Below, piece after piece: positions 2,266 to 59,778 of a DNA stretch of 64,000 bases (the first letter of the stretch is position 1; every line of letters begins with the position of its first letter). A program made the translations under genes and the position numbers. The notes below the pieces were generated by a model. That model was not told the DNA's origin. It did no database searches and saw only the letters and a list, made by a program, of their open reading frames with translations. Source of the DNA: Capsicum annuum. Taxonomy: Eukaryota > Streptophyta > Magnoliopsida > Solanales > Solanaceae. The stretch lies in NCBI RefSeq assembly GCF_002878395.1, contig NC_061112.1, positions 40,354,784 through 40,418,783 on the forward strand, given 5' to 3'.

Positions 2266-2963
2266 TGTAACGCCCCAAAAATGGGTCCCAAAGCATCACA
2301 CGGTGCTTAAGTGTACAAGTAGCCCCAAGATAACCCTTTGAGCCTACTACTTCACATAATAACTTGCTTAGAGATGAAATAGACAAATCACGGGCACTGA
2401 TATATCAAAATAATAAGAAATACTATGAAAATACTTTGTTTGAAGAACCATAATTCTGGAAATCTCGACCAACTAACAATCTGACAACTAGTCTGAAAAA
2501 CCCTCTACTACTCAAGAACTAGAGAGCCATTGGGACAGGTCCCCAACTGGCTCATACTCAACTGAAAAGAGATGAACAACTACTAGATAAACTGAATATC
2601 TAAAGATAATCGGTCCTCGAACCATGAGGACTCACCATTGTGGAGATGTAGATAAAGGCACTTGAGGATCACTGACGAGGCTGGGATGGAGTACCTAAAC
2701 CTACATTATGAGACAATGTAGCACACAGACGTATATGTGAATCAGTACTTTGGGAATGTACTAAGCATGTGGAGGTGTATGCAAATAAATAATCAGTATC
2801 ACAAGTCTTAATAGAAAATATACATGCTATAACAGATGACTCACATAGCTTAAATAAAATTCTCATAAGTTGTGGTCAGGAAATAGACAATAGAAATCAC
2901 GTGAGTTATTTCACATTAATCTAGATCGGTATTCTTTCTTTGTTCTCAAATTGTAAATTAGAC
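2266..2963 (-). repeat. Truncated 3' LTR of the outer gypsy element
   Basis: 698 bp align almost without gaps to the first 698 bp (plus-strand sense) of the complete LTR at 12836-15221. They share the left border TGTAAYRCCCCRAAAATGGG and the word AAATCACGGGCACTG. Similarity ends at 2963, where gag-related sequence begins. The rest of the LTR (about 1690 bp) is gone. The retained part includes the three-hairpin module at 2613-2762. Confidence 0.88.
2613..2762 (-). promoter_or_regulatory. Three-hairpin LTR module, outer family copy 1
   Basis: In element sense the order is HP0 (2762-2744), HP1 (2721-2701), HP2 (2631-2613). HP0 has arms AGTAC/GTACT and a 9-nt loop. HP1 has arms CTACATT/AATGTAG and loop GTCTCAT. 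HP2 has arms GTCCTC/GAGGAC and loop ATGGTTC. The same three hairpins, with different HP1 arms, occur in the other gypsy LTRs. Their function is unknown. The palindromes are read directly; an RNA role is inference. Confidence 0.75.
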
Positions 2964-3239: not shown

Positions 3240-4944
3240 TGTAATACCTCAAAAAAATCCAAACCAATATTAGAACCATGTTTAAAGATCATTCTTAGTA
3301 CATCATGGTTATTTTATAGTTTTATGAGAAATTTAGATGTATATTAAGTCTTCAAATAACTCTCAGCTATCAGACGAATCAAAATATTCTATACCGATTG
3401 AATTCTTGGAAAGGATATTGCTATAGTCAACTTTAAATGAGAATATATCTCATTATAATATGAATTATTGAGATCATCACCTACCAATAGATATATAATT
3501 GAATTATCTTTCCAACGATATCAATTTAGCTTAAATCCAATATTGGAGAAAAATGTTATGCCCATTTTACTCCGACATGTCCGCCTGACAAATGAGTGAC
3601 AACATGAGCTGACGACTTATCACAAGTCTGATGTCTTATCAGCCCATGTCGTTAGGCTTAGACAGAAACCCAAAAATTCCAGCTCCCAGGTGATGACCTG
3701 GGCTGATGAGATATCACAAATCTGACAATTTATCAGCTTTGGTCGTCAGCTAATAATTTTAGCAACTGGGAGGTGATTTTGTGGGGGTATTTTGGTCTTT
3801 TCTTTTACTTTAAACACGATATTAAAGCCCTGAGAAGGATATTTTCCCATTATGTTCTCATTCTTCTCAAGAACAAGAACATTCTCTCCCAAAGGGGTTA
3901 AACCCTAGTCAAGAAAAATCAAGAACAAGCCTAAGGATTTCTTCAAGAACCTTCAAGAAATATTAGATCTCTTTCAAGATCAAGCTTTAAGGTATGCGTA
4001 GTGTTCATCCATGGATTCCTTTGATCCATGGAGCTCAAGAATTAAGTTTTAAATAATAAATTGTTTTTATCTTGTTGTGGTATGATTATGTCCATGTTGA
4101 TGGTTGTTATTTGGGTTTCAAGGTAGTATCTTAATGTATTGGCATGAAGTATGTAAGCATGTTTAGATTAAATACATAACTTTGGGTGACTTAGATCGTT
4201 AAATTTATAAGTATACCTATGCCCAAAGTTGTGCATGTAAGGTGTTCGACAAAATGTCTAGAATGATAAAAAGCATGATTTCATGACTCAATAGTGCTTA
4301 CATGACAAGTCCATGCTATATCCCTTATGATTCAACATAAATTCCATGCTATTTTTGTTTATTGATTATTGTGATGTGGAATGCCCATGACCTTGAAGTT
4401 ATGAAAGTATTTACATGTTATACGCATTTCTTTCCATGTATAAGATGTTGAGGACCATGTGTAGTATGAAATCCCCTATTTATGGTATAACGAATTATGG
4501 ATTTTATTCCTATGATCAAGAAGTGTCATGTGTGTCAGTTTCCTTATATCGAGTCATGGGGGTACTTGTATCGAACAATTTAGCTATATGCCTAGAGCCA
4601 TGTCATGTTTCACAATACTCTCAGTTAAGCCATAATCCCCAGAATTCAGTCAACCATGTGACTCAAGAAATCTCAGATATCTCAGTTGTTCAGTAATCTC
4701 AGTGATTTCAGTATTCTAATTAAAATCTCAATAACTACAATACTCTTAGTTAGTCCTCAGACATCAGTATCTTCCATCAGTCAACGAAACTCAGTAAACT
4801 CAGTTTAGCCCTGCTAAACAATACCACTAGTATCAGTTCAGTAAATTAGTTCAGTTCAATTAATCAATTCAGTTCAGCTTAATTAATTAGTTCAGTGTCT
4901 TTCAGATGGGAGTTGGATTCAGAACTGAGTGAGCCTAGGAATGG

Positions 4945-5466
4945 GGACTCACCCGCTAGATAGGACTGAGATCCATAGAAGCAATCCTAAGTTCTAAAGC
5001 TACGTAGACAGCATAGGTACGAGATGTCACCCATTAGATAAGACTGATATACTCAGGGATCACCCGTTAGCATATTTAAATATATAGGACTGATCCTAGG
5101 AGTCACCTGATAGATTTGGACTGACTCCACAACAGTTGTCTTTACCAGTGGCACGGTACTGACACCCTTCCAACTGGGGTTACAGGTTAAACCCCAGAGT
5201 AGCTAGAAGGGGCATGTCGGTTAGATGAATACATCCCACAGTTTCAGTTATATAATTAGAACTGTCAGATATAGTAAATCCTTATCAGTATAAATAGAGT
5301 TTGGGATCACCATTAGATAGGACTGATCTCAACTATGGTCAATCAATATCAACATAATCAGATTTAGAGAGACCCTCTAGGTAGGACTGATCTCAGACTA
5401 AGTCAAATCATCTTTATTATCAGTATCATCAGATTCAGAGATCACTCGCTAGATAGGACTGATCTC
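4945..5466 (+). repeat. LTR hairpin array, about seven units
   Basis: Units share a core like CCCGCTAGATAGGAC but have different self-complementary flanks. Unit 1 is GGACTCA (4945-4951) with TGAG-A-TCC (4967-4974). Unit 3 is GGATCA (5057-5062) with TGATCC (5091-5096). Unit 4 is GGAGTCA (5099-5105) with TGACTCC (5122-5128). Unit 5 is GGGATCA (5303-5309) with TGATCTC (5324-5330). Unit 7 is GAGATCA (5438-5444) with TGATCTC (5460-5466). Units 2 and 6 are imperfect in this copy. The core is constant while the stems vary unit by unit. Confidence 0.75.
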
Positions 5467-5901
5467 AGATTTAGTTACTTAGATATAGTATGAAACTCAA
5501 CTAGTTCTATCAAATTCAAGACTATCAGATATAGTGACTTATGTTATCAGTTATGTAATTTATCAGAACTCATGTTATCAATATTCAGCTTCAGAACTGT
5601 CAGATACAGTCAATCAGACCAGTTCTTTATAATCAAAACTGTTAGACACAACTATTCGTGAATCAGTAGTATAGTATCAGTCCCTCAGTATATAGTAATA
5701 TAGTATCAGTTTTTCTCACTCATCAGTGACTCAGATGTCAATATCAGAAAACTTAGCAGTCAGAACTCGGTATTCAGTCCTATCACAATGTCAGTTATAA
5801 TTACGTATGCATGGATATATTCTCACATTCATGTTAGTCAGTCAATTAGTATTGTTCATGCATATAAACCCTATTGCAATTAGCCTACCTCACTTTCATA
5901 C

Positions 5902-6037
5902 CAGTACATTTAAAGTACTGACTCATTTGCGCTATGGTGTCTTATACCATAGGTTTAGAAGCACGAGATCCAGAGCATCAGTAGTATTCCAGGTTTTAAC
6001 AGACAGAGTTAGCAGTGAGTCCTCATCATTCAAGGAT
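5902..6037 (+). promoter_or_regulatory. Three-hairpin LTR module, family A 5' LTR
   Basis: HP0 (5902-5920): arms CAGTAC/GTACTG, loop ATTTAAA. HP1 (5932-5952): arms CTATGGT/ACCATAG, loop GTCTTAT. HP2 (6019-6037): arms GTCCTC and AAGGAT, loop ATCATTC; its outer pair is G-U and its innermost pair is a mismatch. The module ends about 330 bp before the LTR 3' end. Confidence 0.75.
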
Positions 6038-6374
6038 GATATTTTTTGATTATATTACTATTTTAATTTTTAGTTTATTTCAGTAGATGGAGTTTGTTGG
6101 GGACTTGTCCCATCAACTCGTTATTCAGACAGTTTAGAGGCTTTCAGACTATAGCATGCCAGACAGTTATTTTAGATTTATTTTTGTATTGTATACCATA
6201 TTTTCAGTCATGTATTAGTATTGAACCTTATGACCTTTCAGTTTATGTTTCCATATTTTATAGCCTTTTATGTAGTATACAGGTACAGATAGCATTCATG
6301 GGTTAGCTTGTGGTCCTTCGAGGTCATGAGCACCATGTAGCATTTCGGTTTAGAAATTTATGGCATTACAAACT

Positions 6375-6386
6375 TGGTATTAGAGC
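6375..6386 (+). other. Primer binding site, initiator-Met tRNA
   Basis: TGGTATTAGAGC lies 4 bases after the LTR end. It matches the complement of the plant initiator-Met tRNA 3' end (TGGTATCAGAGC) with one C-to-T change. It marks where reverse transcription would start. Confidence 0.85.
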
Positions 6387-8917
6387 CTAAGGTTCAATAG
6401 AGTCATAGAAAGTCTGAAATTCGCATCTAGTAGAGTCTTGTACATAGGTTCGTTGTGCACCACACTTATATGCAGGAGGCAATAAGATGTTTTAGGAATA
6501 GTTTCCCTTCTTTCATGTCTCAGGCCGTGTTATAGAAAGGTCCTCTAATAAACTCATATAGATTCTCATCATGCTTTACTCATGTCAACTCCACCTTACA
6601 TTCAAGGTAACAAAAATAGTGGAGCTTAAAGTCCTAAATATATGGATTTCTCAGACAGTCCCTACAGACAGTTATGGGATTTACCATATGCTTAGATAGT
6701 ATCCCTTAGTTCCGTTATGTTCTAAAGTTGTATGAATCTTATTCATGATCATGAGAACTCGTTCTCAAACCCAGATTTAAATATTCCACCAGATACCTTC
6801 TCAGAATCCTATGATAGCATATGACTAGAGTTAAAAGCATGAATCCAGGGGTTTAGTAGTAATGGAGTTGGGATAACATTATTCGGATTGATCAGATTAT
6901 GTATTCATGGGGATAGTTGTTCCAGAATAAATTAGTAGGCTTGAATAGTGTGAGTTAGAAATTTAAGTTTATTGACTTGATATTAAGCATGAAGGTGTGA
7001 ATGTGATATTAGTAGTATGTGAGGAAACAGAGGCAGATGATGTGTTTAGTAAGGCGAGCATGTATCGATCAGAGTGTAAGTATATGATGATGATTGCAGT
7101 TCAGTTCAGAGATTAGTTTAGTATTTACAGTCTTATGATGGTATATCAAGTACCCAAGTCAGGCTCTCAGATTTTAGTAGTAGTGCCAGTATGTACAAAA
7201 AAATAGTTAGGGAAGATAATCCCCGACCCATCCTTATCTCAATGTAAAGTTTCACACTCCAGTCGGCATGATGCCTATACATGTTTCATGTCTCATCTCC
7301 ATGAACACGACTTATATTCATGCTTTCCATAGAATCATGTACGATTCTATTTCCCAGCATAAGGGGTCGGTTATATTCCCCTCAGTAATACAAATCATGT
7401 CCCATGAATACAGAAAGCTCCCAGCTCAGATCATATATCTCATGACTCATGTACACATATTACGCTTTACAGATTTCTCAACTCCCATGACTCATGTTAC
7501 ACTCCTATTGATCATTTAATCCAGGATATGTCATGTATATCCTCAGTTCTAACCTTCTGGGTACATCCATATTATTGATATCCTATTCCTCAGGCCTCAG
7601 TCATGTGTCAAGTTTAGATACTGTCTATTCATGTTTTAGGTCCTCTTGATTCAACTCCTTCAGTGAGCTCTCTTTGTGAGAATAGTGTAGTGATGAGTAG
7701 TTGCTTAGATAAGTGAGAGAGTAAATGATACATGTTAAGAGAAGGTTGTTGCATGCTTACTTTACAAGAGGGTGTAGTTATGAAAATAGGCTTGAATGTC
7801 ATGATAAGTGTGCAAGTAAATGGCTAGCAAGAGGTAGTATTTAGAAATTGTGAAATTTTAGAATGTAAGTGTACATTCAGAGCCTTGACTTATGTCAGCC
7901 TTCATTTTGCAACTATCATAACTCAGTTACCATCTTAGTTACAATTTCAGTAATCAATGTTCAGGCTCAGAATCAAGAATTTTAGTATCAGTCTAACCTT
8001 CAGCTATCAGTACTCAGTTATTAGGACCCAGTATCTAGATTCAATATGGATCCTAGTTACAATCTTAGTTATAATATATGCTTCAGTCAGTAATTAGCTA
8101 AGTTCATGTGTCATGCCTCAGTTTCAGATCTCATGTAATCAGTCGTGATTCAATTTCCTGGTGCCTTGCGCATCACCTCAGCTTTCCTCAGTAGCTCAGC
8201 CAAGTCAGTATTCTGTGAGGGACCTAGTCAGTATTCCCCAAACTTTCATAACATAAGCATTCCATTCTCTCTTCATGTAATGAATCTAGTATGGGCTAGG
8301 AGATACTCATAAGTTGACCCTTAAGCTCTAACCTCAGTTGCCTGCCATGTACTACAGACTCAGTTCAGTTCATTTATCATGTTCCAGACTCAGTTATGTT
8401 CTCGTGTTTCTACTCATGTATATTATGTAATTAGTCTCAGACACATCGATATTTTTAGTTCAAGTTAACAGTCTTCCTTGAAGTTACTCATTCTCATGTT
8501 CAGATATTAGTAACAAACTTGGCATTAGTTCTATGCTCAGTTTTCTGTTCAAACTTGGTATCTTTACCATTACATGTTCAGTCGCATGTTCATAAGTTAG
8601 TTCAGTTATGTATTCATGCATCAAATATGCATGATAAGCTTATCAGTACTTTCAGTCATGTATTCACATATCATGTCAGTCATAAAATTAGGTATCAGAT
8701 ATGCATTCTTATTATGAGAAACTCAGTTCATCAGAACACTCAGTCATGCATTCATGAATCAGTTACTCATGCATCAGATATGCATGTTCAGTATGATGTA
8801 TTCATCTTATTAGTCATGTTAGTCCCAAACCTATGTTTCAGTAGTGTATGTCTTGCACGTACTTCAGTTGATCTTTTCTTCCATCTCAGTCAATCTCATT
8901 TGAGGACGAATGTTTCC
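6387..8917 (+). other. Non-coding interior of the LARD-type element
   Basis: The first 150 bases resemble the normal gypsy leader (GTGCACCACACTTATATGCA at about 6455). After that no Gag, protease, RT or integrase motif can be read in any frame. The sequence is rich in CAGT and CATG words. From about 8600 it matches the 3' interior of the element at 53891-60130, with shared words such as ATGCATCAGATATGCATG. The loss or replacement of the coding region is therefore complete, not a series of stops. Confidence 0.75.
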
Positions 8918-8927: not shown

Positions 8928-10628
8928 TATTGTAATACCCCCCCAAAAATCCAAACCAATATTAGCGCCATGTTTCAAGCTCATGCATAGTACATTATGG
9001 TTATTTTATAGTTTTAAGAGCAAGTTATATGTATATTAAGTCTTCAAATAACTCCTATCTATCAGACGAATCGAAATATTCTATACTGATTGAATTCTTG
9101 AATGGATATTGCTATAGACAACTTCAATTGAGAATATCTCTCGTTATACTATGAATTATTGATCTCATGACCTACCAACAGATAGATAATTGAATTATCT
9201 TTCCAACTATACTGGTATTACTTAAATCCAATATCGGAGAAAACATTTATACCCATTTTACTCCGACATGTCCGCCTGACAAATGAGTGACAACATGAGC
9301 TGACGACTTATCACAAGTCTGATGTATTATCAGCCCATGTCGTTCGGCTTAGTCAGAAACCCAAAAATTCCAGCTCCCAGGTGATGACCTGGGCTGATGA
9401 GATATCACAAATCTGACAATTTATCGGCCTTGGTCGTCAGCTGATAATTTTAGCAACTGGGAGGTGATTTCGTGGGGGTATTTTGGTCCTTTCTTTTACT
9501 TTAAACACGATATTAAAGCCCTGAGAAGGATATTATCCCATTATGTTCTCATTCTTCTCAAGAACAAGAACATTCTCTCCCAAAGGGGTTAAACCCTAGT
9601 CAAGAAAAATCAAGAACAAGCCTAAGGATTTCTTCAAGAACCTTCAAGAAATATTAGATCTCTTTCAAGATCAAGCTTTAAGGTATGCGTAGTGTTCATC
9701 CATGGATTCCTTTTATCCATGGAGCTCAAGAATAAAGTTTTAAATAATAAATTGTTTTTATCTTGTTGTGGTATGATTATATCCATGTTGATGGTTGTTA
9801 TTTGGGTTTCAAGGTAGTATCTTAATGTATTGGCATGAAGTATGTAAGCATGTTTAGATTAAATACATAACTTTGGGTGACTTAGATTGTTAAATTGATA
9901 AGTATACCTATGCCCAAAGTTGTGCATGTAAGGTGTTCGATAAAATGTCTAGAATGATAAAAAGCATGATTTCATGACTCAATAGTGCCTACATGACAAG
10001 TCCATGCTATATCCCTTATGATTCAACATAAATTCCATGTTATTTTTGTGTATTGATTATTGTGATGTGGAATGCCCATGACCTTGAAGTTATGAAAGTA
10101 TTTACATGTTATACGCATTTCTTTCCATGTATAAGATGTTGAGGACCATGTGTAGTATGAAATCCCCTATTTATGGTATTATAAATTATGCATTTTATTC
10201 CTACGATCAAGAAATGTCATGTGTGTCAATTTCCTTCTGTCGAGTCCTAGGGGTACTTGTACCCGACAATTTAGCTGTGTGCCTAGAGCCATATGATGTT
10301 TCATGATACTCTCAGTCAATCCATGATCCATAGAACTCAGTCAACCATGTGACTCAGGAAATCTTAGATATCTCAGTAGTTCAGTAATCTCAGTGATTTT
10401 AGTATTCCGAGTAAAATATCAATAACTACAGTACTCTCAGTCAGTCCTCAGACATTAGTACCTTCTGTTAGTCAACGGAACTTAGTAAACTCAATTTAAC
10501 TCTGCTAAACAATATCACTAGTATAAGTTTAAGTTCAGTTTAGCTAATCAATTCAGTTCAGCTCAATTAATCAGTTTAGTGTCATTCAGATGGGAGTAGG
10601 ATTCAGTACCGAGTGAGACTAGGAATGG

Positions 10629-11153
10629 GGACTCACCCGCTAGATTGGACTGAGATCCCTAGAAGAAATCCCTAAGTTCCAGAACAATGTAGCCAGCGTA
10701 GGTACGAGATGTCACCTATTAGATAGGACTGACATACTCAGGGATCACCCGTTATCACATTTAAATATATAGGACTGATCCTAGGAGTCACCCCCTAGAT
10801 TAAGACTGACTCCACAACAACTGTCTTTACCAGTGGCGCTGTACAGACACCCTTCCAACTGGGGTTACAGGTTGGACCCCAGACTAGCTAGAAAGGGGCA
10901 TGTCAGTTAGATGAATACATCCCACATTTCAGTTACATAATTAGGACTGTTAGATACAGTCAATCGTTATCATTATAAATAGACTTTGGGATTACCCGTT
11001 AGATAGGACTGATCTCAACTATGGTCAATTAGTATCAGCATAATCTGATTCAGAGATCACCCGCTAGGTAGGACTGATCTCAGACTAATTCAAATCATCT
11101 TTATTATCAGTATCATCAGATTCAGAGATCACCCACTAGATAGGACTGATCTC
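10629..11153 (+). repeat. LTR hairpin array, second copy
   Basis: Collinear with 4945-5466. Unit 2 pairs better here than in the 5' LTR: GAG-ATGTCA with TGACAT-A-CTC. Unit 4 is GGAGTCA/TGACTCC around a changed core. Unit 7 is GAGATCA (11125-11131) with TGATCTC (11147-11153). Confidence 0.72.
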
Positions 11154-11588
11154 AGATTTAGTTACTCAGATATAGTACATAACTCTACTAGTTCCATCAG
11201 ATTTAAGACTGTCAGATACAGCCACTCATGTTATTAGTTATGTTAGTTATCAGAACTCATGTTATCAATATTCAGCTTCAGAACTGTCAGATACAGTCAA
11301 CCAGACCAGTTCTTCATAATTAGAACTGTTGGACACAGTTATTCGTGTATCAGTAGCATAGTATCAGTCCCTCAGTATATAGTAATATAGTATTAGTCTT
11401 TCTCACTTATCAGTGACTCAGATTCAATATCAGTAAACTCACTAGTCAGAACTCAGTATTCAGTCCTATCACGATGTTAGTTATAGTTTCATATGCATGC
11501 ATTTATTCTCACGTTCATGTTAGTCAGTCAATTAGTATTGTTCATGTATATGAACCCTATTGCATTAAGACAACCTTAATTGCATACA

Positions 11589-11723
11589 AGTATATTTAAA
11601 GTACTGACATATTTGCGCTATGGTGTCTAATACCATAGGTTTAGAAACATAAGATCCAGAGCGTCAGTAGTATTCCTAGTTTCAGCAGATAGAGTTAGTA
11701 GTGAGTCCTCATCATTCAAGGAT
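11589..11723 (+). promoter_or_regulatory. Three-hairpin LTR module, family A 3' LTR
   Basis: HP0 (11589-11605): AGTAT/GTACT with loop ATTTAAA and one wobble pair. HP1 (11618-11638): CTATGGT/ACCATAG, loop GTCTAAT. HP2 (11705-11723): GTCCTC/AAGGAT, loop ATCATTC. Two point changes from the 5' LTR copy fall in the HP1 loop and at one HP0 pair that becomes a wobble. Confidence 0.72.
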
Positions 11724-12056
11724 GATATTATTTAATTATGTTACTATTTTAGATTTCAGTTTATTTTAGTAGATGGAGTTAGTTGGGGACATGTCCCATC
11801 AACTCTTTATTCAGACAGTTTAGAGGCTTTCATACTATAGTATGTCAGACAGTTATTTTATATTTATTTTGGTATTGTATACCATATTTTCAGTCATGTA
11901 TTAGTATTGAACCTTATGACCTTTCAGTTTGTGTTTCCGCATTTTACATCCTTTTATGCAGTATACCGATACAGATAACAGTCATGGATTAGCTTGTGGT
12001 CTTTCGGGGTCATGAGCACCATGTAGCATTTTGGTTTAGAAAATCAGGGCATTACA

Positions 12057-12061: not shown

Positions 12062-12626
12062 CAGAAGCATATTTTTCTAACTAGTTGAACTTCATGAAGT
12101 ACTCCTTAACAGTTATGGAGCCCTGCCTTAAGTTCATAAACTCCTATACTTTCGCCTCCCTCATCTCTAATGAAAAGAACTTATCCAAAGATGCATCTTG
12201 AAACACCTGCCAAGTAATAGGGGCATCATCTTCTTCTTTACTCTTCTTTCATGTAACAACTTAGTCATAAGAAATGTCCTTCAACCTGTAAGACGCCAAC
12301 TCTACACTTTCTTCCTCAGACACATGCATCATTTGAGTAATCTTTCTCACCTCTTCAAGATATATTTGTTGGTCCTTACCTACCTTGGACCCATATAACT
12401 CTGGCAGATTCATCCATATGAAATCACGAATCCTGGCAGCAGCTAAATCACTTTCCTACTACTGCAGAGCTGTGGCCTAGTTATTGGCCTGAATATTCAC
12501 AGTGACTGCTTGGGCTAGTGCCTAAAAAGCTGCCTAAAACTCGGCAAGGGACACATTTTCGTTTAAGGGATCAGTAGGCTAAGGTTGCTGATTATTGTTG
12601 TTTCTGCGGGCTCGACGCGGAGACAT
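12062..12626 (-). pseudogene. Gypsy gag, N-terminal part (outer element)
   Basis: The minus strand from the ATG at 12626 reads MSPRRARRNNNNQQP, later ALAQAVTVNIQANN, RIRDFIWMNLPELYGSKV, MMHVSEEESVELASYRLKD. This is the usual N-terminal half of plant Tekay/Del Gag (capsid), which packages element RNA in virus-like particles. Many TAG stops fall where glutamine is expected. The frame continues at 3239 across the nested element. The RT-bearing part is absent. Confidence 0.8.
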
Positions 12627-12819
12627 TTTCTGAAATAAGAGAGCACGTATTAATAGCTGAGAGAAACATCTTTAAACACGATAGACTCTGAAAGAAAGAA
12701 ATGACTTTTTCCAAAATGTTATGTAGCTCCTTGCTCATAGATGTGGCGCGCTACTCACCAATGATCAAGAATCTACTTAACGTGACTTGTCAGACTCCCT
12801 AGGACTCCTTAAACCTTTG

Positions 12820-12831
12820 GCTCTGATACTA
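12820..12831 (-). other. Primer binding site of the outer element
   Basis: On the minus strand TAGTATCAGAGC follows the LTR end (12836) by 4 bases. It matches the initiator-Met tRNA complement with one G-to-A change. Confidence 0.8.
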
Positions 12832-12835
12832 AGTT

Positions 12836-15221
12836 TGTAATACCCCGAAAATGGGTCCCGAAGCATTACATGGTGCTTAAGGCTACAAGTAGCCCCAAGC
12901 TAACCCTTTAAGCCTGCTACTTTATGTAATAACTTGCTTAGAGATGAAATAGACAAATCACGGGCACTGTTATATCAAATCATAAGAAATACTGTGAAAA
13001 TAATTTATCCGAACAACCATAATACTTGAAATCTTAACATACTAACAATCTGACAACTCGTCTGACAAAGTCTTTACTACTCAAGAACTAGAGAGCTATT
13101 GGGATAGGTCCCTAACTAACTCATACTCAACTAAAAAAAGATGAACAACTACTAGATAAACTGAATATCTGAAGATAAACGGTCCTCAAACCATGGGGAC
13201 TCACCACTGTAGAGATGTAGATAAAGGCACTCAGGGATCATTGATGAGGCTGGGAGGGAGCACCTGAACCTACATTATGAGACAATGTAGCACATAGACG
13301 TATATGTGAATTAGTACTTTGGGAATGTACTGAGCATGTGGGGGTGTATGAAAATTAATAATCAGTATAACAAGTCTTAATAGAAAACATGCATGCTATA
13401 ATAAATGAGTCACATAGCTTGAATAAAATTCTCATAAGTTGTGGTTAGGAAATAGATAATAGAAATCAAGTAAGTCATTTCACTTTATTCTGGATCTGTA
13501 TTCTTTCTTTGTTCTCAACTTGTAAATTAGATGAAATCTTAAAATATCAACTTTCAAGACATAAGTTATAATCTCATGAAAGCAAGAAACTTCTTGGGAA
13601 TTTAATAATCATGACACTTGAAAACTTTAGGAATCATAGGGTCATAACATTCAAAATCAATATACCTTCAAACTTACACTTTTCGCTTAAGGATAGTAAA
13701 ACTTCTTTAAAACTCAAGAACTTAATACTTTAGGAACTTTAAGACTTGAGACTCTCAGAAACTAAGAAACTTTGGGACACTTGGGACTCGGGATTATATA
13801 ACTTTCAGAGTTTCTTCTAACCGATATAAACCATGTGAGCTATATGGAGTCCAACGTATTGCCCACGTTGGGGAGAGATGTTCTATCCTTGCCATCAGAG
13901 TAGAACCTTTAACATTTAGTGATCATTAGCTTAACCCATTTAGGGTAAATCAGAAACCTATGGGGGCACGTAGTTCTGGGGCATGAGACCTCGGAATCAA
14001 GCCCAACTTGCTGCTAAATACTACTCCCTTAGCTCAGAAATTTAAAAAATCCACCTTAAACAATTCAACAATATATAATGGGAGCCAATATGCTTCCCCT
14101 TTATCTCAAATCAAACAAATAATGTGGATTTCTTTCTTAGCTTAGGATCAAAACTCAATTCTTTTCTTGAAATCTTGATAGACTTTTCATTAAAGTTTTA
14201 AAATCTCAACAACATAGAAATATAAGTACACTTCTTAGAGTATGAATAATTAATCCTCAAAGACTCACAATTTCATAATAAAGTTCAACTCATGACAACA
14301 ACTCTTGGAAATTCTTGGAAACATGATATCAATATAGGAATGTGCAATTTATATCAAGAACTCTCAATTTAGATCCTAATTGAACAAAATAATCATGCAA
14401 TTTAAGACTTGAACAATTCCATAATCTCATAAACTTGAAATATAGTAAAATAATATGAATTCATCTTGGAAATACGAAATTCTTTAAGAAAATCTAAAAC
14501 TTTTGGGCACCAGAATGAAAGAGTGTTCTTGTTCAAACCCCACATACCTTGAAATTAAAACTTGAGTGATTTCTTAACTTTGGGTTGCTATTCTTGAAAT
14601 TAATGGGTCTTTCTTGTAGCCCTCGGAATGGGCATTCCAATTCTAAAAAATTATTGAAAACCAATGGTTAAATTTTGAGTTCTCTTGAAGTTTGTGTAGA
14701 AATCCTAAGCGATGTTCTTGGTGGTTTTTGATGAAAGTATGAATAATATGGTATTTTTGGGGTGTAATATCATGTTAAGGATGATAAAAAAGTGGGAAAA
14801 TACCAACTTTACCCTTAATGAGATGGAGAAAAGAAGCTGAAAACTGGGCACAAAGGCTATAGCCTGGGTGGCGCCTTGCCCAGAGCCTTTGCTAAGGTAG
14901 GTAACGCCTTGTCCAGAGCCTTAGCTAAGTTGGGCGGCGCCCCTTAGTAGCCTTTAGCTACTGGTTTGGCACCCTAAACGTGCCCTAAGTAGATTCTAAA
15001 AATTTTGAAACTCACCCGAGATACCTTATGACCTTGCCCTATTGCAACGCAACAACAAAATCAAGATATGGAGGTCGAAAAGGTCATGAAATAATTCATC
15101 AAAGTTTGAGGGATCAATAATGAACTAAGTGTTGTAACAATTAGCTAAAATTCTAAGTGTTAAGCTTCTTTTAACTTGCTTCGAAGGCTTTGATGATGAG
15201 AAAACTTTACAGGGTTTTACA
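12836..15221 (-). repeat. 5' LTR of the outer gypsy element
   Basis: 2386 bp. On the minus strand it begins TGTAAAACCCTGTAAAG at 15221 and ends GGTATTACA at 12836. The last 698 bp match 2266-2963. It contains a GC-rich cassette with repeated GGCGGCGCC/GGTGGCGCC words (about 14835-14995) and the three-hairpin module (13182-13331). The right border rests on the TG start, on position relative to the MULE frame, and on a weak target-site match (ATGCT versus TTTCT). Confidence 0.75.
13182..13331 (-). promoter_or_regulatory. Three-hairpin LTR module, outer family copy 2
   Basis: In element sense: HP0 13331-13313 (AGTAC/GTACT), HP1 13290-13270 (CTACATT/AATGTAG, loop GTCTCAT), HP2 13200-13182 (GTCCCC/GAGGAC, loop ATGGTTT). 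The T-to-C change in the HP2 arm leaves one G-C pair as a C-A mismatch or, on the plus strand, a wobble. The other two hairpins are intact. Confidence 0.7.
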
Positions 15222-16853
15222 ATGCTGCTGCCTAAACTTTTCACCAAATTTTCTAGAAATTTAATTGAATATGTACGACAACGGGGGTACTCCCATTCAT
15301 CCATCAACACTGAGTTGAGTGACTCGGCGATGTTTTTGGTCATTACATTGTACCTATTTCTTGGGAAGTGTGCTCTACTCCATTTCTCAAAACTAAGCAT
15401 ATTTTCAAGGACATGTACTACCTCAAGGTAATTATTCTTCAATTCCTTAAAATGATCGCTAAATTCATCAAGTGAATAAGCCTTTACCGTGGTGTAGAAT
15501 AGATAAAGATGTTCTCCACAGTATTAATTTACACGAAGATTTTCAGTGAGGTACCTCATGCAAAGTCCATGATGTGCACGACTATAAATACGGAAAAAGA
15601 CATTAGCAATGCTAATGTGCCTATTCGGAGATGACACATAGATTTGGTTCATCTTCTACTATAGACTTCAACTTCTCGACGTAGAATGTCCAAGAAACAT
15701 TATTCTCTTTATCCATAACATAAAATATAATTGGGAAGATATGATTTTTGGTGTCCTATGCAATGGCACTCAGCAACACACACCCATACTTACTATATAA
15801 ATATCTTTCATCAATGATAATTACCTTTCTCATGTGGGTATATTCCCGTATGTAAGCTCCAAATGCTAAAATATAGTAAACAAATGATCCATCCATCCTG
15901 TTTACCATGATATAGTAAGAAGACCCGAGATTCAATAACTCCACCATGTGGAAAAAAGTTGGCAAGCAATCATATTCGTACTTTGGTGTCCTGCGAATGA
16001 TGTTCTTTGCGATTACACTTCCTTTCTAACACATCCAATAGCTTGCGTTGCAATGCAGCTCCCTAAACACAATCCTCTAAATTTCTCTTATGCCTGACCC
16101 TTACCATCCCAAAAATGATTTATACATAGTGAAGCAATCAATTAAAATGAGATTATCTTATGCCTACCCATGGTGTGTTCAACACCACACGTGTGGAACC
16201 CAACATACGTGTATATGCAAAATCTGTTTGAGAATTCATACTTCTTTTCCCATAATAACCAGCTGCAACCACGAGATACACTTTTTGCCTTCAATAATTT
16301 GGTGCATCTCTTCACCATAAAATAATTAAAAGACTACCTAATCGTTGCTCTGTCTAGTAGTATTTTGGGCTCTTTCTTGTTGGAGAACGTTTGATCATAA
16401 TATAAATTGATTCCATCAGCGAAGGAATGTCTTGGTTGTGATTTCGTTCCACAATCATCTTTTGCATCTTGCGAGTCCAATGAAACGTCTTCTATCTGCA
16501 TAGAATCATCTTCAATATTAATTGGATGATCACAATTGTTCTCATAATCATTCAAATCATCATCGACTGTCGGGCGCCGAGGTGGAGTGGTGATGAATTC
16601 AGCGGTCCTTCAAAGGGACTCTCAACTACATTTATCCTTAAATAGCCCTATAGCCATTTGCATCAACATCCATTATGTACAATGAAATATGTATATCATT
16701 ATTTATGATCGTAGGATGCACCTTTTCCCTCGAATACATTAGATAACGAATCAGTATGTCACTTGGTGCACAATCTAGATCCCTGCTTTGCATTATGCTT
16801 GCAACCAAGTCATCGTATGAACTGTTGCAGTGAACAGTAATGGACAGTTTCAC
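15222..16853 (-). pseudogene. MULE transposase, N-terminal and catalytic part
   Basis: Minus-strand segments in order: 16853-16638 with LDCAPSDILIRYLMYSREKV (plant MULE N-terminal domain); 16555-16334, an acidic linker; 15965-15756 with FHMVELLNLGSSYYIMV, then HMRKVIIIDERYLYSKYG, the first catalytic-Asp region of the MULE fold; then frames with NNVSWTF and a His-rich AHHGLCM-like stretch near 15560; then WSRAHFPRNRYNVM and NIAESLNSVL at about 15380. Several frameshifts and stops. The frame is broken at 15222 by the outer gypsy element and resumes at 2265. About 0.73 kb of possible 5' sequence precedes it. Confidence 0.85.
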
Positions 16854-17991: not shown

Positions 17992-18761
17992 TGATGGATT
18001 AGCATTTTAATATTTCATAATATTAATTTGCTTTATTGTTTTCTTGGAATCTCATTTCAATTGCCCATTATTATTTTAAGTTACATTGCATTGGGCATTA
18101 ACTTATTATGTTGTCATTGCTTCTTCCGTTGCTGCATTCCCATTGTAATGTAATGCCACTTTATGCCTCTTTATTCATACTTTTCACTATTGGAAGGTGA
18201 AGCACCCATTTTCCATTTATTTATAATTCTTATGCCTTTAAATACAATAGTTAGTGATGACAGAATGTGGACATAAGTTTCTTGTAATTTTTGTAACTTC
18301 TACCATTATTCTTTTTAGTATTCTTGTAACTCTTATAATATCTAGGATATTGGTCTTTCCTCTTTACTATCCATTTATTCTTTCTATTCATTGCATGAAA
18401 TATTTTCTCACCTATAAATAGAGCTGGTCTTGCATATTTTTTAAAGTACGTGAAAATATTGAGTTAACAAAAGTTAGAAAAAAAAGTTTATTAGTTGAAT
18501 GGAGGTGTTCTTTTTGTGGAGCTTTGAACTCAATTCTGGTCTATAGTTTTTGAGTTGTTCTTTGTGAGAAGGTTGTTGTATCCTAGAAAGGACAAGTTAA
18601 GAAGATTATTGCTGGATAAGTGAAACTTTGTTGCATTAGGCTTGAATCTCCTTAAAAAGAGCGAGATATCTGCGCCTCAGCGAAGAAGAGAAAGATATTC
18701 TTTTAATTTTCTTTATTTGTAATTTTTTTCAATTGTGATTTTTATTGTAATTTCACCAATA
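17992..18761 (+). repeat. Copia 5' LTR
   Basis: Starts TGATGGATTAGCATTTTAAT and ends near TTTCACCAATA. It is collinear with the 3' LTR, sharing TTTCACTATTGGAAGGTGAAG, GCCTTTAAATACAATAGTTA and GAATCTCCTTAAA, but differs by several indels. The pair is clearly old. Confidence 0.85.
18412..18422 (+). promoter_or_regulatory. TATA box of the copia 5' LTR
   Basis: CTATAAATAGA is a canonical plant TATA box about 420 bp into the LTR. The matching site in the 3' LTR (23643-23653) reads CTACAAATAGA, so the element's downstream promoter copy has lost a core base. Confidence 0.75.
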
Positions 18762-18798
18762 ATTTTAAGAAGATTCAATCGCAACAACTGAAAAATCA

Positions 18799-19655
18799 AT
18801 GGATGTCAAGATGACAGATCTTAATAAGCCATTCCGGTTCAATGGTACTCATTTCAGAAGGTGTAAGGGTAAATTACTTTGCTACTTAAGTCTTCTCAGC
18901 GTGTCTTATATGTTAACTCAGAAGAATCCAAATAAAGTAGATAACTCGTACATGAATGATGAAGAACTTATTTTTCTTCAAGAGAAAGTTGAAAAATATG
19001 ATGATGACTTCTACCAGTGTTGGTATCTTCTTCTTAATTGTCTATCTATTAATTTTATGATTATTATGATAAAACTTAGTGGAAAGAAAATTTGAAAAGC
19101 ATTGCAGAGTATGTATGACACTATGGAGGCGGAAGAGAAAAAAATATACTGCTAGCAGATTTTTCTATTTTTAAATGGTGGACAACAAATAAGTGGTAGA
19201 CCAAGCTCAGGACTTCATAATTATTGTTGGAGAGATTAGGTCCGAGGAAGTCAAAATTGGAGATAACCTTATTGTTTGTGGCATAATAGATAAACTTCCA
19301 CCTTCTTGGAAGGAATTTCAAAAAAATTATGCACCATAAGCAAAAGAAAACTTCATTTGGCACTTCGATAGTGAGAATCCTCATGGAAGAAGAAGCAAGG
19401 TACCAAGCTACACTTTTGCAAACAGAAGAAAACAACATCATACCGGAGGTAAATTTAATTACTTCAAATAATGTTGCCCCTGAAACTGACAAAAATACTT
19501 GTTTGAAGACTAAGAAGAAAAATTTTAAGAAAAATAATGGTAGACATCCAAAGGGCAATAACGGTCGAAATAACCAAGCAAAAAATTAACATGTTCAACA
19601 AAAGAGACCGTGCTTTGTCCGTGACAAGAGTGGACATATTGCTTGATTTTGAAAA
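18799..19655 (+). pseudogene. Copia gag
   Basis: The frame opens at ATG 18799 with LNKPFRFNGTHFRRCKGKLL and continues through WYLLLNCLS, then in other frames [24 protein letters not shown] and [15 protein letters not shown] (about 19190-19330), then a basic KKKNFKKNNGR tail (19329-19589). A degenerate zinc knuckle follows at about 19615-19655 (CFVRDKSGHIA): the second cysteine and the last cysteine are lost. Gag forms the particle in the cytoplasm. Several stops. Confidence 0.8.
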
Positions 19656-19739
19656 TTTCAAAAATATGGGCCTACACCTTAGGCAAACATTATCGAAGAA
19701 ATATTTGTGGAGGTGATAAAAGACATAAATATGATGGAG

Positions 19740-22680: not shown

Positions 22681-23236
22681 GCCTATAAATTCCTAAGTCA
22701 TATGTAAGGAAATCTAACCTGAGGGCTAGAGATCCTATAAACAGGTTCAATGGAAAAAATGAATAACATGATCAGTTGTTGTGAAAAACATAGTATTTTT
22801 TTATCCCTCCCTATGCTATGAGTGTATATACCTATAATGATCGTGAGGTTGAGTTTAAATTAAAATTAGTAGTTCGTATGAGTTGGGTGATAAAATTACA
22901 GGAGAACTCTTGATAGATTTTACCTATGTGAGTGTGGAAATAGGCCGATTCCTATGAGTATAAGGCTCATTCTCAAAGACACTCATGAAATCGGGATAGC
23001 ACAAGGCTGTAACATGCTGGCTATATAGCTCATGTTAACACCTTGACTATTATGTGTAAGTGGTAATGTTTTATTTCCCTCAGAAAGTCATAATTCAAGT
23101 CTGAGACCACTACAACCTGAAATAAAAATTACTATTTTACTAAGTAGAGGTTCAATGCAGATCACCACTTCATTATATATGGTAGTCTTCCTTTTTCTAG
23201 TAGACTATTATTCTAATATTAAAATAAGTGAGGAAT
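22681..23236 (+). other. Copia 3' untranslated interior
   Basis: About 555 bp between the RNase H end and the 3' LTR. No coding signal. The bases before the LTR (AAGTGAGGAAT) are a weak polypurine tract. Confidence 0.55.
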
Positions 23237-23942: not shown

Positions 23943-24004
23943 ATAGTACTATGACAGATATACATAGATTGATAGTCATGTTTAGTCGCCTGATAATATA
24001 AAAA
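23943..24004. other. Spacer between copia and family B array
   Basis: Opens with ATAGTAC, the repeat of the copia left flank, and ends in an A run. This 62-bp island is probably the pre-copia flank. The base string next to the B LTR (AAAAA) only weakly matches the other side (AGGAA at 44948). Confidence 0.5.
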
Positions 24005-30537: not shown

Positions 30538-30680
30538 GTCCTCGAAATATGAGGACTCACCACTGCTGTGGCAGATAGTCTGGAAAGTCTATGTGTAATT
30601 TGAGAACTCAGCATCCGAACCTATGATATGATACATCATAGCACAAGAAACGAGTATCGAATAAGTACTTTGAATGTACT
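30538..30680 (-). promoter_or_regulatory. Three-hairpin LTR module, solo LTR E
   Basis: In element sense: HP0 30680-30664 (AGTAC/GTACT, loop ATTCAAA), HP1 30641-30621 (CTATGAT/ATCATAG, loop GTATCAT), HP2 30556-30538 (GTCCTC/GAGGAC, loop ATATTTC). All three stems pair perfectly. Compared with family A, one G-C pair of HP1 is A-T here. Confidence 0.78.
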
Positions 30681-31040
30681 GGAATGCTAAATAAGGTAGG
30701 CTGATATGCATGGTTTCATATGTATGAGTAATAACTGACTAGATGAATAACACGAAGTATTGAATAGATGCATGAAAACTATATAGAATGAGAATGCATG
30801 ACCAAGCATAAAAGATATTCTGAATATAATCTGTAAACAGAAGTACTGAAATTTGATAAATGAATAACCGATAAACTTTAAGCTATGGTTAAGTAAGACT
30901 GAGCTAAATTCTTAACTGAGTACTGAAACTAAAACCTTTGGAGATATCATCTAACCAACATGCCCTACTCTGAGCTGATTGGGGTCCAACCTGTGACCCC
31001 AGTTGGAAGGGTGCTAATACCGTGCCATGGGTACTAACAA

Positions 31041-33989: not shown

Positions 33990-36690
33990 TGTAACACCCT
34001 AATTCGCCGAACCGGAATGCTACACGGTGCTCATGACCTCGAGAGACGACAAGCTAGCCCATGACTGATATCTGTACCTGTATACTGCAAATTATGATAT
34101 AATAATGCAGAATACATAGAACTGTAAGGCCATAAGGTTCAACTGAATACAATCATGTGGGTGAAAATACCCAAAACAACTCAATATGAACATAAATCTG
34201 AAAGCCTCTAAACTATCTGAATAAGGAGTTGAAGGAACATGTCTCAAACTAACTCTATAATACTGAACTGAAGAAATAAATAAATGTATCAAATCATATT
34301 GTCCTCGAATCAATGAGGACTCACTGTGTCTCTGCGACTGGAATGCTACCACTACTACTGGGCTGGAGCTCGTGTCTCGGAACCTATGGTGTAACATGAA
34401 AAGAAATCACCATAGCGAAAATGCGTTAGTACAACTGGAGTACTAAGTATACGAGGAAGGTAGGCTGAACATAAAGGGTTTCATGCATGAACAACACTGA
34501 CTGACTAATATGAACGTGGGAGTGCAAACACACGTATATAGAAACTAGGACCATGAATACGTGATAGCACGACCTGTAAGCTAATACATGGTTTACTGAT
34601 AACTGTCATGACGATACTGAAACTGATAACATAGATGATTGTATCTGACAGTCTTGTATATACTAAAATTTGAAGAACGCCTTGAGTTCTTTTACAGAGA
34701 CTGATGCTGAAACTGTGGGAAGTAGTGTTTAACCGACATGCCCCATGTATGCCATTATAGCTAAGCTGGGTTCCAATCTCTGCCCCGACTGGAGGGGTGT
34801 CAATACCGTGCCACGGGTAAGGACAACCTGTGAGTGACCCTTATCTGGTGGGTACTCAATGAGAATGTTGGGAACCCTAAAATAATGGGTTAATCCACCT
34901 CATCAACCCTAATCTGACGGGTTAAGATGTCTCAACCTACGATGGCTACGTAGTTCTGGAACACATGGATGACTACTAAGAATCACACCCTAAACTGGCG
35001 GGTGAGTTCCCATCCTTGGGTTCACTCGGTGCTAACCTCTACTCCCATCTGGAGGGACTGGACATGAATAACTGACTCTGCATGACTTAATCTTGCTGAA
35101 TTCCATTGACTGGCGGAATGTTACTGACATCTAACAATTGACTAAGATCATGAGTTTTTCCTGAGTCACATGACTGACTGAAGTCTATGGAATCATAGCT
35201 TGAGGTTGGATATCGTGAAACATGACATGGATCTAGGCACACAGTTGTAGTTTTTGGGTACAAGTACCCCCAGGACTCGATGGAAGGAAACTGACACACA
35301 TGACTGACTTGATCATAATAGTAGAGTCCATAATTTATATTATCATAAGTAGGGATCTCATACTAAGCATGGTTATCAACAATGTATTGCATGGAAAGGA
35401 TTTCATATCACATGGAAGTACTTGCACAATCTTAATATCATGTTCATTACATAATCATATTGGCAACACATACCAATAGCATGGAAGTTCATGTGGAATG
35501 CATGGTTATCATACATCTTGTTCATAAGTAGGATTTGCAAGTAAACATAGCATAATCTCATAAGAATAGTTCATGAGTATTCCAACAACATTTACAAGGC
35601 ACATTAACAACATAGAAGTCATTGGAACGTAAGGGCATATCATGAATCCTTCACTTAGTTACAATTTAGCTATATTACATGATTTCTAGTTTCTTAGGCA
35701 TTTTATCAAACACCGTACATGCACATCTTAAGCATAGGTGAAATCATCAAATTCATACATCATGAACAACCCAATTTACATGTTTCCAACTCATATAATA
35801 TCATGTAATTCAAAACAACCATATAAAGATTCCATCTTGGGAATCACCCAATATCAACAACATGATCATCAACACCCAAAATATAAAAATCATACTTTAT
35901 AATGAAAAAGAGCATTTTTGAACTTTATGGATGAAAGGGATCTATAAATCAACTCACGCATACCTTAGAAGAAAAATTCTTGATGATTGATGGACGAATT
36001 TCCTTAAAATTGGATCTTCAAGCTTAGTTACGCAACCCTAGTTGTTTTTCTCTTTTAGTGCTCTTGGATGATGAGCTTTGAGATGAAAATAGGGTTGTAA
36101 TATGTTTAGAAGCTATATATTTCGTAGGGTTAAGTTTAGGGACGTGTAAGGAGTGTTAAAAGACTTAATTACCCCTAAAATAACTCAAAACGGAGTATTT
36201 TTGGCACCTGGAATTGACTAAGGTGGTGCCCAAGTGACTGCCTAAGCTAGGTTAGGCGGCGCCTAACCAATCACCTATGTTTGGGTTGGGCGGCGCCTAA
36301 CCAATCGCCTATGCTTACTGTCTCTCACAAAAATAGGCATAACTTATCGCTCGGGTATTGGATTAAGGTGAAATTGGTATCGTTAGAAAGAGAATTCGAT
36401 TCTATATAATTTGGTGGGTCTAAATCAGACAAAATACCACATTAATATCAATTTATACTCATTCAAAGATGACTCTTGCAGAATAAAATAATAAAACTTG
36501 ATGGATTAAAAAACTCTTAGCTTGTATTACCTTAAGTGACTCATATGAACATGCTTAATGCATCATAAGCTATCCTATCACTAGGATATTCACTGTAAGT
36601 CATGTACTCAAGTATGAATCACAGGATAGGAGATTTCATACGTAGAAATACTTATTCACTTCCTAGCTTAGAAACATGCAGGGTATTAAA
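33990..36690 (-). mobile_element. Antisense solo LTR inside family B middle LTR (family D)
   Basis: 2701 bp. Left border TGTAACACCC, right border GGGTATTAAA (one base off CA), exact TGTGG duplications on both sides. It shares with the family A LTR the words GCTCATGACCTCGA and GACATGCCCCAT, and the AGGACTCGAT block. It contains the three-hairpin module (34301-34444), hairpin units (34832-35010) and a cassette with two GGCGGCGCCTAACCAATC copies (36195-36325). No internal sequence, so it is a solo LTR. Confidence 0.9.
34301..34444 (-). promoter_or_regulatory. Three-hairpin LTR module, solo LTR D
   Basis: In element sense: HP0 34444-34428 (AGTAC/GTACT, loop TCCAGTT), HP1 34415-34384 (CTATGGTG/CACCATAG, a 16-nt loop), HP2 34320-34301 (GTCCTC/GAGGAC, loop ATTGATTC). 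The HP1 loop is larger than the usual 7 nt, yet the stem is one pair longer. Confidence 0.75.
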
Positions 36691-59641: not shown

Positions 59642-59778
59642 CCAGTACACTTAATCGTACTGGCACATTTATGTTGTGGTGTTTTATACCATAGGTTTAG
59701 AAGAACGAGCTGCGAAGCATCAGTAACATTCCAGTCTCAGCAGTCAGATTTACCAGTGAGTCCTCATCCTTCGAGGAC
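59642..59778 (+). promoter_or_regulatory. Three-hairpin LTR module, family C
   Basis: HP0 (59642-59663): CCAGTAC/GTACTGG, loop ACTTAATC. HP1 (59674-59694): TTGTGGT/ACCATAG, loop GTTTTAT, two wobble pairs. HP2 (59760-59778): GTCCTC/GAGGAC, loop ATCCTTC. Confidence 0.78.

What the first reader, a model, noticed from the sequence alone, without database searches (positions are those of the whole stretch)
5902..6037. Three-hairpin module conserved in gypsy LTRs, mostly with 7-nt loops
About 300 to 375 bp before the LTR 3' end, three consecutive palindromes recur in the same order within 135 to 150 bp: HP0 (AGTAC/GTACT), HP1 (CTAYRRT/AYYRTAG) and HP2 (GTCCTC/GAGGAC). I see them in family A (5902-6037, 11589-11723), outer (2613-2762, 13182-13331), E (30538-30680), D (34301-34444) and C (59642-59778). 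Most loops are 7 nt (some HP0 loops are 8 to 9, and D HP1 is 16). The rest of these LTRs is poorly conserved between families. This suggests a structured RNA signal (packaging, dimerisation, strand transfer or 3'-end formation) or a palindromic protein site. Function is inference.
Basis: partly seen in the sequence, partly recalled or inferred. Interest (0 to 1): 0.87.

Follow-up and report, generated by a model that had tools for sequence, protein, structure and literature searches.

The report
Hairpins in plant retrotransposon leader intron
The three hairpins are real and belong to a longer, conserved series of RNA stem-loops in an abundant group of plant jumping genes; they sit inside what looks like a removable intron, which could let the element keep its genome RNA apart from its protein-coding message.

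Summary
HP0, HP1 and HP2 are at the stated places in all seven copies and are not confined to them: in the 3.2-Gb host genome the HP2 motif has 70,639 matches (up to 2 mismatches), reversed control 1. HP1 with six free stem bases has 36,947 matches, control 6; in 86 of the first 100 listed all three free pairs are Watson-Crick, in four stem types. Stem mismatches are mostly G·T, not A·C (169:57; control columns 1177:1285; HP2 left out), so the selected molecule is probably sense-strand RNA. The larger find: HP-D starts about 16 nt after a conserved splice-donor-like site, [AC]AG|GTATG, inside the LTR, and an acceptor-like site lies 3 nt before the gag AUG. Hairpins and primer-binding site would lie in one leader intron (1.9-2.4 kb in the three copies with both ends exact). 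Best reading: signals marking unspliced genomic RNA for packaging or dimerisation. Structure well supported; intron strongly predicted, not seen in RNA; function inferred. No Rfam match at gathering score.

The parts
3992..3996 (+). Predicted 5' splice donor AAG|GTATG in LTR A5; equivalents: A3 9683 (+), C3 58178 (+), D 35963 (-), E 32005 (-), O3 14547 (-); C5 copy mutated (AAGATATG)
   Evidence: in these six LTRs the only match to [AC]AG|GT[AG][ATG]G
3855..3991 (+). Exon-1-like leader of A5 (start approximate; TSS not mapped): T-poor, no ATG in its last 120 nt
4008..4032 (+). HP-D of A5: 9-bp stem, 7-nt loop, 16 nt after the donor; C3 58194-58218 (+), D 35924-35948 (-), E 31964-31990 (-)
5902..5920 (+). 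HP0 of A5 (CAGTAC/GTACTG)
5932..5952 (+). HP1 of A5 (CTATGGT/ACCATAG, loop 7)
6015..6037 (+). GTGA plus HP2 of A5 (GTCCTC..AAGGAT, imperfect)
6090..6119 (+). HP3 of A5 (not in the finding); A3 11776-11805, C 59826-59855 (+), O5 2524-2553, O3 13093-13122, E 30454-30483, D 34226-34255 (-)
6301..6334 (+). HP4 of A5, 36 nt before the LTR end (not in the finding)
6374..6387 (+). Primer-binding site of A (TTGGTATTAGAGCC); O PBS 12819-12831 (-)
   Evidence: that it is the initiator-tRNA-Met type is recalled
11588..11723 (+). HP0-HP1-HP2 of LTR A3
2613..2762 (-). HP2 (2613-2631), HP1 (2701-2721), HP0 (2744-2762) of O5
13182..13331 (-). HP2 (13182-13200), HP1 (13270-13290), HP0 (13313-13331) of O3
30538..30681 (-). 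HP2, HP1, HP0 of the E solo LTR (about 30168-32811)
34301..34446 (-). HP2, HP1, HP0 of the D solo LTR (about 33991-36690)
59643..59778 (+). HP0, HP1, HP2 of the C 3' LTR (57475 to about 60128)
12619..12635 (-). Predicted 3' splice acceptor of O, TTTCAG|AAAATG, directly before the gag-like start codon

Best explanation
HP0, HP1 and HP2 are part of a series of six conserved sense-strand RNA stem-loops (HP-D, HP0, HP1, HP2, HP3, HP4) in the 5' leader of an abundant chromoviral (probably Tekay/Del) LTR retrotransposon group in a probably solanaceous genome. Shown by sequence: the stem-loops, their covariation as a set, their order, and their place between a splice-donor-like site in the LTR and a splice-acceptor-like site 3 nt before the gag AUG. 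Strongly inferred: this stretch is an intron. Transcription starts at a TATA promoter in the first third of the LTR; splicing joins a short ATG-poor exon to the gag AUG and gives a translatable mRNA without hairpins or primer-binding site, while unspliced RNA keeps both and serves as genome. Inferred: the hairpins are recognised in the unspliced RNA, most likely by Gag for packaging or as dimer contacts; HP4, 36 nt before the LTR end, may instead serve the start of reverse transcription.
For: Structure. HP1 pair 5937-5947 ranks first of about 204,000 column pairs and is significant within the 46 proposed pairs against a phylogeny-aware null (E 2e-4 and 6e-4); HP3 pair 6094-6115 E 0.008 and 0.010. 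Sense RNA: G·T:A·C 169:57 in HP0, HP1, HP3 and HP4 against 1177:1285 in control columns; RNAalifold sense/antisense -37.7/-28.7 and -16.4/-5.7. Donor: 6 of the 7 window LTRs that keep this end; 12 of 20 genome loci exact, 4 more one base off. Composition step at the donor, n = 17: T 0.26-0.28 in the 180 nt before, 0.38-0.46 in the 120 nt after; ATG 0.1-0.6 per 100 nt in the 240 nt before, 4.3-6.2 after. Acceptor: 10 of 14 PBS-bearing loci have YAG directly before the gag start after a pyrimidine-rich tract; O, F1 and F2 in the window too. The PBS lies between donor and acceptor. Both ends exact in one copy: O3 (1,918 nt), L053 (2,406), L048 (2,446).
Against: No RNA data: neither TSS, splice junction nor structure was observed. 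Only two of the proposed pairs are significant on their own, and none over all column pairs (best E 0.95 and 2.8), because the 60 sequences fall into few clades. HP2 hardly varies, most loci were retrieved by it, and its G·T:A·C is 5:4. Of 20 long loci 4 show no donor; of the five long loci with a PBS only two (L048, L053) have both ends exact, L051 has a one-off donor 1.2 kb before the acceptor, L045 no donor, L043 no acceptor and a decayed donor. In A5 the place before the gag-like ATG has no YAG. 24 of 127 candidate spliced junctions were read and none is a spliced copy (20 flagged and 3 judged by eye as mutated acceptors, 1 unclear). HP1 loops are 13-18 nt in 11 of 60 copies. HP-D reaches my stem score in 13 of 25 copies (3.8% of shuffles), folds better in antisense, and its G·T:A·C is only 47:30. 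HP0 and HP4 are not unusually conserved. Nothing here tests Gag binding.
Confidence: 0.5

Rival explanations
1. The hairpins regulate splicing: they keep part of the transcript unspliced, or mask decoy splice sites. GTGAGT overlaps the 5' edge of HP2 and a T-rich stretch ending in CAG or TAG follows about 57-77 nt later.
For: HP-D lies right after the donor; GTGAGT is invariant in the seven window copies; T-rich stretch ending in AG before HP3.
Against: HP0, HP1, HP3 and HP4 lie far from both main splice sites; 50 of the loci beyond the window were retrieved by GTGAGT, so its conservation there is no test; such an intron would be very short for a plant (recalled).
Confidence: 0.2
2. Reverse-transcription structures in U5: they place the tRNA primer or help strand transfer.
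For: HP4 lies 36 nt before the LTR end and its fold is sense-specific (-10.2 against -0.9).
Against: HP-D, HP0, HP1 and HP2 lie about 0.34 to 2.3 kb upstream of the PBS in A5.
Confidence: 0.15
3. A palindromic DNA-binding site of a host or element protein.
For: Short palindromes in an LTR; HP0 and HP2 stems scarcely vary.
Against: Stem letters change together (HP1, HP-D); G·T accepted more than A·C.
Confidence: 0.05
4. No intron: the promoter is near HP0 (TATA-like CATATAAACC at 5861) and the hairpins are a TAR-like 5' end of the transcript.
For: TATA-like word about 40 bp before HP0 in A5.
Against: That word is not kept in C, D or O; the ATG-poor exon, donor and acceptor would be unexplained.
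Confidence: 0.07
5. Ordinary LTR homology with incidental palindromes.
For: A, C and D are 68-76% identical; no pair is significant over all column pairs.
Against: Compensatory stems in 100 listed copies each of HP1 and HP-D against shuffles; unguided alifold recovery.
Confidence: 0.03

Closest known systems
Retroviral leader with major splice donor and packaging hairpins (HIV-1 DIS/SD/Psi; passages of PMC7599994)
   Same: Series of stem-loops near PBS and gag start; residues from the major splice donor to the gag start codon are needed for packaging
   Different: Here the donor-like site lies deep in a long LTR, upstream of the PBS, so splicing would also remove the PBS; the acceptor is at the gag AUG itself; the hairpins are spread over about 2 kb; no function tested
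R-U5 leader intron of HIV-2 and SIV gag mRNA (recalled; the passages of PMC4576183 found under 'intron', do not mention it)
   Same: An intron within R-U5 upstream of gag
   Different: That intron is short (recalled); here about 2 kb, in a plant element, and including the PBS
BARE1 distinct RNA pools (passages of PMC3735527)
   Same: Plant LTR retrotransposon that separates translated from packaged RNA; spliced RNA encodes Gag
   Different: Copia; [quoted passage not shown] its pools also differ by promoter, cap and poly(A)
Retrosat2 of rice, LTR over 3.2 kb with R of 2,023 bp (passages of PMC3485330)
   Same: Very long LTR with promoter near its 5' end and a long R
   Different: The word intron does not occur in its text and 'splic' only in a reference; its secondary-structure passages concern proteins
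LTR profile HMMs (passages of PMC3601003)
   Same: Links residual conservation in long R regions to stem-loops
   Different: No plant Gypsy model in its table 1; no hairpin series like this in the 12 passages seen

Membership tests
Tekay/Del lineage of plant chromoviruses | Ty3/Gypsy pol with integrase C-terminal SH3-like domain and chromodomain | tested here: inconclusive
   SH3_Tf2-1 PF24626 in C and F, RVT_1 in F; among the 120 listed of 954 relatives of the C piece, one named solanaceous protein (P0083, Solanum lycopersicum) and several unnamed ones also carry PF00385 Chromo; the chromodomain-like pieces of C itself gave no Pfam hit
Tekay/Del lineage of plant chromoviruses | Reverse-transcriptase phylogeny within Tekay | not tested
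   No reference tree made; the lineage name rests on recall and on passages of PMC7076952 (Tekay/Del predominates in Capsicum annuum), and that the genome is Capsicum is inferred from its size
LTR retrotransposon | TG..CA LTR pairs, target-site duplication, PBS | tested here: met
   A: TGTAATACC...CATTACA, 5-bp duplication CAAGT, PBS after the 5' LTR
Retroviral-type packaging signal (Psi) | Conserved RNA stem-loops in the leader | tested here: met
   By sequence; that the region is leader RNA is inferred
Retroviral-type packaging signal (Psi) | Present in unspliced but absent from spliced RNA | tested here: inconclusive
   Follows from the predicted donor and acceptor; no RNA observed
Retroviral-type packaging signal (Psi) | Gag binding and selective packaging | not testable with these tools
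   Needs experiment
Spliceosomal intron | Donor, branch site, pyrimidine tract, acceptor, U-rich body | tested here: met
   Sequence features only; CTRAT exact in 5 of the 10 acceptor loci, variants in the others
Spliceosomal intron | Spliced transcript | not testable with these tools
   No transcript data; 0 spliced genomic copies among 24 candidates read of 127
Any Rfam family | Covariance-model match at gathering score | tested here: not met
   0 matches in 64,000 bases; with E up to 5 only weak matches in 3240-6450, none over HP0-HP4

The most novel reading that the evidence does not exclude
An abundant plant retrotransposon group uses a retrovirus-like RNA switch: a leader intron of about 2 kb, starting inside the LTR and ending at the gag AUG, holds the primer-binding site and six covarying stem-loops that together make the packaging and dimerisation domain. 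Splicing thus irreversibly assigns each transcript to translation or to replication, and non-autonomous members persist by keeping the intron signals without the acceptor.
Probability: 0.4. Interest if true: 0.85.

Novelty: new variant of a known kind. Interest (0 to 1): 0.74.

Why it matters
How plant LTR retrotransposons divide one transcript between translation and packaging is largely open; a 2025 review (PMC12786077, passages) says plant LTR elements generally lack introns, naming Ogre and EVADE as exceptions. If true, a group with tens of thousands of marked copies in one crop-sized genome has a built-in splicing switch and a candidate packaging domain with exact boundaries, testable wherever long-read RNA data for such elements exist. 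It would also help locate promoter, leader and cis signals of long-LTR elements and of copies that hitchhike on them.

Tried and rejected
Relatives outside the window: viral contigs by HP2 and HP3 pattern and by two protein pieces, none usable; genome contigs by HP2, 0. Rfam: nothing at gathering score, weak matches off the module. TAR-like start next to HP0: dropped because the TATA-like word is not conserved. Spliced retrocopies as proof of splicing: 127 AAG|AACATGCC matches; the 12 loci returned plus 12 chosen from the 100 listed for exon-like letters were read, 0 spliced. In one search my HP4 pairs were out of register; one search gives the corrected ones. The script stopped with an error at its last windows; one search failed on an assertion and was redone. 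An earlier count said 14 of 20 donors; the recount is 12 of 20 exact. Literature: eleven paper requests, one not accepted (bad term), ten answered (one search listed none). No listed title or abstract start described a leader intron in a plant Gypsy element; eight papers were seen as passages only, the rest as listings. The count of intact acceptors (YHYAGAACATGCCTCCYARRA) did not complete.

Rows dropped: L001 from the 60-sequence alignment (it is A5 itself); 4 of 58 loci without an HP2 anchor (54 kept); alignment columns over half gaps. HP2 pairs were left out of the G·T/A·C total because most loci were chosen by HP2; pairs whose commonest type is G·T were left out too.

Full report
1. The observation. 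In sense orientation the order is HP0-HP1-HP2 toward the LTR 3' end. The elements: A has 3.13-kb LTRs (about 3240-6370 and 8931-12056), a 5-bp duplication CAAGT and a 2.6-kb internal region; C has a 3' LTR at 57475-60128 with pol remnants before it; D and E are solo LTRs inside a third element F; O surrounds A, and pieces of a MULE-like ORF (by eye) lie on either side of it. A, C and D are 68-76% alike over their last 500-600 bp, so the evidence in the window is about five families.

2. More than palindromes by chance. Unguided RNAalifold on the seven LTR ends gives -37.7 in sense, -28.7 in antisense, and -7.0 +/- 3.0 in 60 column shuffles. Sliding windows over the whole LTR alignment give z -9.2 (HP0+HP1), -4.6 and -4.1 (HP2), -5.6 (HP3), -4.2 (HP4), and -7.7 for a further hairpin at A5 4008-4032 (HP-D); also -4.5 at 5076-5205 and -3.2 at 3562-3672; no other window that ran is below -2.6 (the last windows failed). 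Counting 45 named pairs: 93.3% standard, 10 pairs with changes on both sides, 17 such cells; shuffles 88.7%, 4.7, 5.6; further pair types 27 against 24.3 (63 of 500 as high); sliding the partners gives at most 52% and 3 pairs. HP1 is paired in 100% of cells; its main forms are CTATGGT/ACCATAG, CTATGAT/ATCATAG and CTACATT/AATGTAG.

3. Genome-wide. Of the first 100 listed HP1 matches, 86 have all three free pairs Watson-Crick and 3 more pair with G·U; four stem types occur, among them one TGC/GCA; random re-pairing gives 32.6 on average, 49 at most. Of the first 100 HP-D matches, 92.6% of 800 free cells pair, against 82.7% (maximum 84.5%) after shuffling; 6 of 8 pairs show Watson-Crick changes on both sides; eight distinct perfect 9-bp stems occur, 30 copies in all. 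Matches are listed in order along contig C1, so these are samples of one chromosome, not of the genome. HP-D's G·T:A·C is 47:30, a weaker bias than in the other stems.

4. Phylogeny-aware test and its limits. 53 genome loci and the 7 window copies were aligned by sequence only (60 rows, 643 columns used; mean identity 63%). With substitutions re-dealt along the tree, the highest of about 204,000 column pairs is 5937-5947 of HP1 (E 0.95 and 2.8 under two nulls, so not significant over all pairs); within the 46 pairs proposed it has E 2e-4 and 6e-4. HP3 pair 6094-6115 has E 0.008 and 0.010. HP1 5936-5948 has E 0.12-0.13, HP1 5935-5949 0.42-0.54; no HP4 pair is below 0.14 and no HP0 or HP2 pair is informative. 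The null is my own script in the manner of R-scape, not R-scape. The structure is thus supported as a set and by the free-stem samples, less so pair by pair. HP1 arms have 2.6 substitutions per column, its loop 7.3, HP3 3.8, all columns 7.5; as low as HP1 are 22 of 562 windows, as HP3 1 of 544, as HP0 138 of 566, as HP4 113 of 534, so HP0 and HP4 are not unusually conserved.

5. Which strand, DNA or RNA? In HP0, HP1, HP3 and HP4, at pairs whose commonest type is Watson-Crick, there are 169 G·T and 57 A·C cells; in 451 control column pairs with complementary majority letters 1177 and 1285; in HP2 5 and 4. The four helices lean the same way (32:17, 17:7, 53:11, 67:22). Related copies are not independent, so the binomial p (5e-14) is only a guide. 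A DNA palindrome or an antisense RNA would not prefer G·T.

6. The predicted intron. HP-D begins about 16 nt after AAG|GTATG. In the window this donor-like site is in 6 of the 7 LTRs that keep that part (C5 reads AAGATATG), and in those six it is the only match to [AC]AG|GT[AG][ATG]G. As [AC]AG|GTATG it recurs in 12 of 20 longer genome loci, 1.2-2.3 kb before HP2, and with one base off in L043, L044, L051 and L057; four loci (L045, L046, L047, L056) show none; other matches to the looser pattern occur in L055 (two) and L056 (one). In 17 copies, T is 0.26-0.28 over the 180 nt before and 0.37-0.46 after; ATG is 0.1-0.6 per 100 nt over the 240 nt before and 4.3-6.2 after. TATA-like words lie about 145-175 nt upstream in some (A5, D, L039, L048, L053, L055), not in all. 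Of 54 anchored loci 14 have a primer-binding site; in 10 of these 14 a YAG lies directly before the gag start after a pyrimidine-rich tract (L016, L023, L028, L032, L033, L038, L045, L048, L051, L053; CTRAT upstream in L016, L028, L045, L051, L053, variants in the others); L001 (= A5), L015, L019 and L043 do not. O, F1 and F2 in the window have such a site too. Both ends exact in one copy: O3 1,918 nt, L053 2,406, L048 2,446; L051, with a one-off donor, 1,215. This is the anatomy of a spliceosomal intron whose exon 2 starts AAC-AUG.

7. A second family. F, whose LTR gives no significant match to the module's profile HMM, has a decayed donor-like CTAAG|GAATG or CTAAG|GCATG in two copies and CTAAG|ACATG in the third, an HP2-like hairpin after GTGAG or GTGAA (25700, 38207, 44635) and an HP3-like GTTGGGGGCATGCCCCAAC near 44700; an HP4-like fold appears in the three-copy alignment but not as a simple stem. 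This is suggestive only.

8. Mechanism. Splicing would give gag mRNA free of upstream ATGs (38-82 between donor and LTR end in six window LTRs), the PBS and the hairpins; unspliced RNA would be the genome. Conserved signals confined to the unspliced form are what a packaging or dimerisation domain requires, as in HIV-1, where residues between the major splice donor and the gag start codon are needed for packaging (passage of PMC7599994). I give this about even odds as a whole. Splice control is the main rival, because HP-D lies close to the donor and GTGAGT touches HP2; HP4 may serve primer placement. That A lacks the acceptor fits a non-autonomous element that does not need its own gag, but whether A has a working gag was not tested.

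9. Known or new. No Rfam family matches. Splicing in plant LTR elements is reported for BARE1, Bagy2, Ogre and CRR (passages of PMC3735527), EVADE (PMC12786077) and sunflower elements (PMC7730604). The ten answered searches listed no paper that by title or abstract start deals with a leader intron or a conserved hairpin series in plant Tekay-type elements; subscription journals are mostly not held. Hence: new variant of a known kind.

Noticed in passing
24005-44948: F element is a tandem LTR-internal-LTR-internal-LTR array, its middle LTR split by the D solo LTR and its first internal region by the E solo LTR; it has HP2- and HP3-like hairpins and acceptor-like sites of its own.
   Followed up: partly
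5155-5232 (A5) and equivalents: Conserved bulged stem (GACACCC..GGGCATGTC around CTGGGG..CCCCAG), z -4.5 in the window 5076-5205, equally strong on both strands; not explained.
   Followed up: no
3629-3717: U3 hairpin of family A with weak, below-threshold matches to miRNA-precursor models in Rfam.
   Followed up: no
2066-2404 and 15128-15523, - strand: Pieces of a MULE-like ORF on either side of element O (recognised by eye; no Pfam hit).
   Followed up: no
17992-23944: Another LTR element with its own LTR pair and an integrase core PF00665 at 20307; copia type by eye, not tested.
   Followed up: no
309-591; 24836-24995, 37349-37497, 43802-43971: 60-bp tandem repeat at the window start; 48-bp tandem repeats in each F LTR.
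   Followed up: no
6345-6361 (A5): Column pair 6349-6357 near the LTR end ranks second of all pairs in the covariation scan (E 2.2 and 4.8, not significant); a possible further small hairpin.
   Followed up: partly
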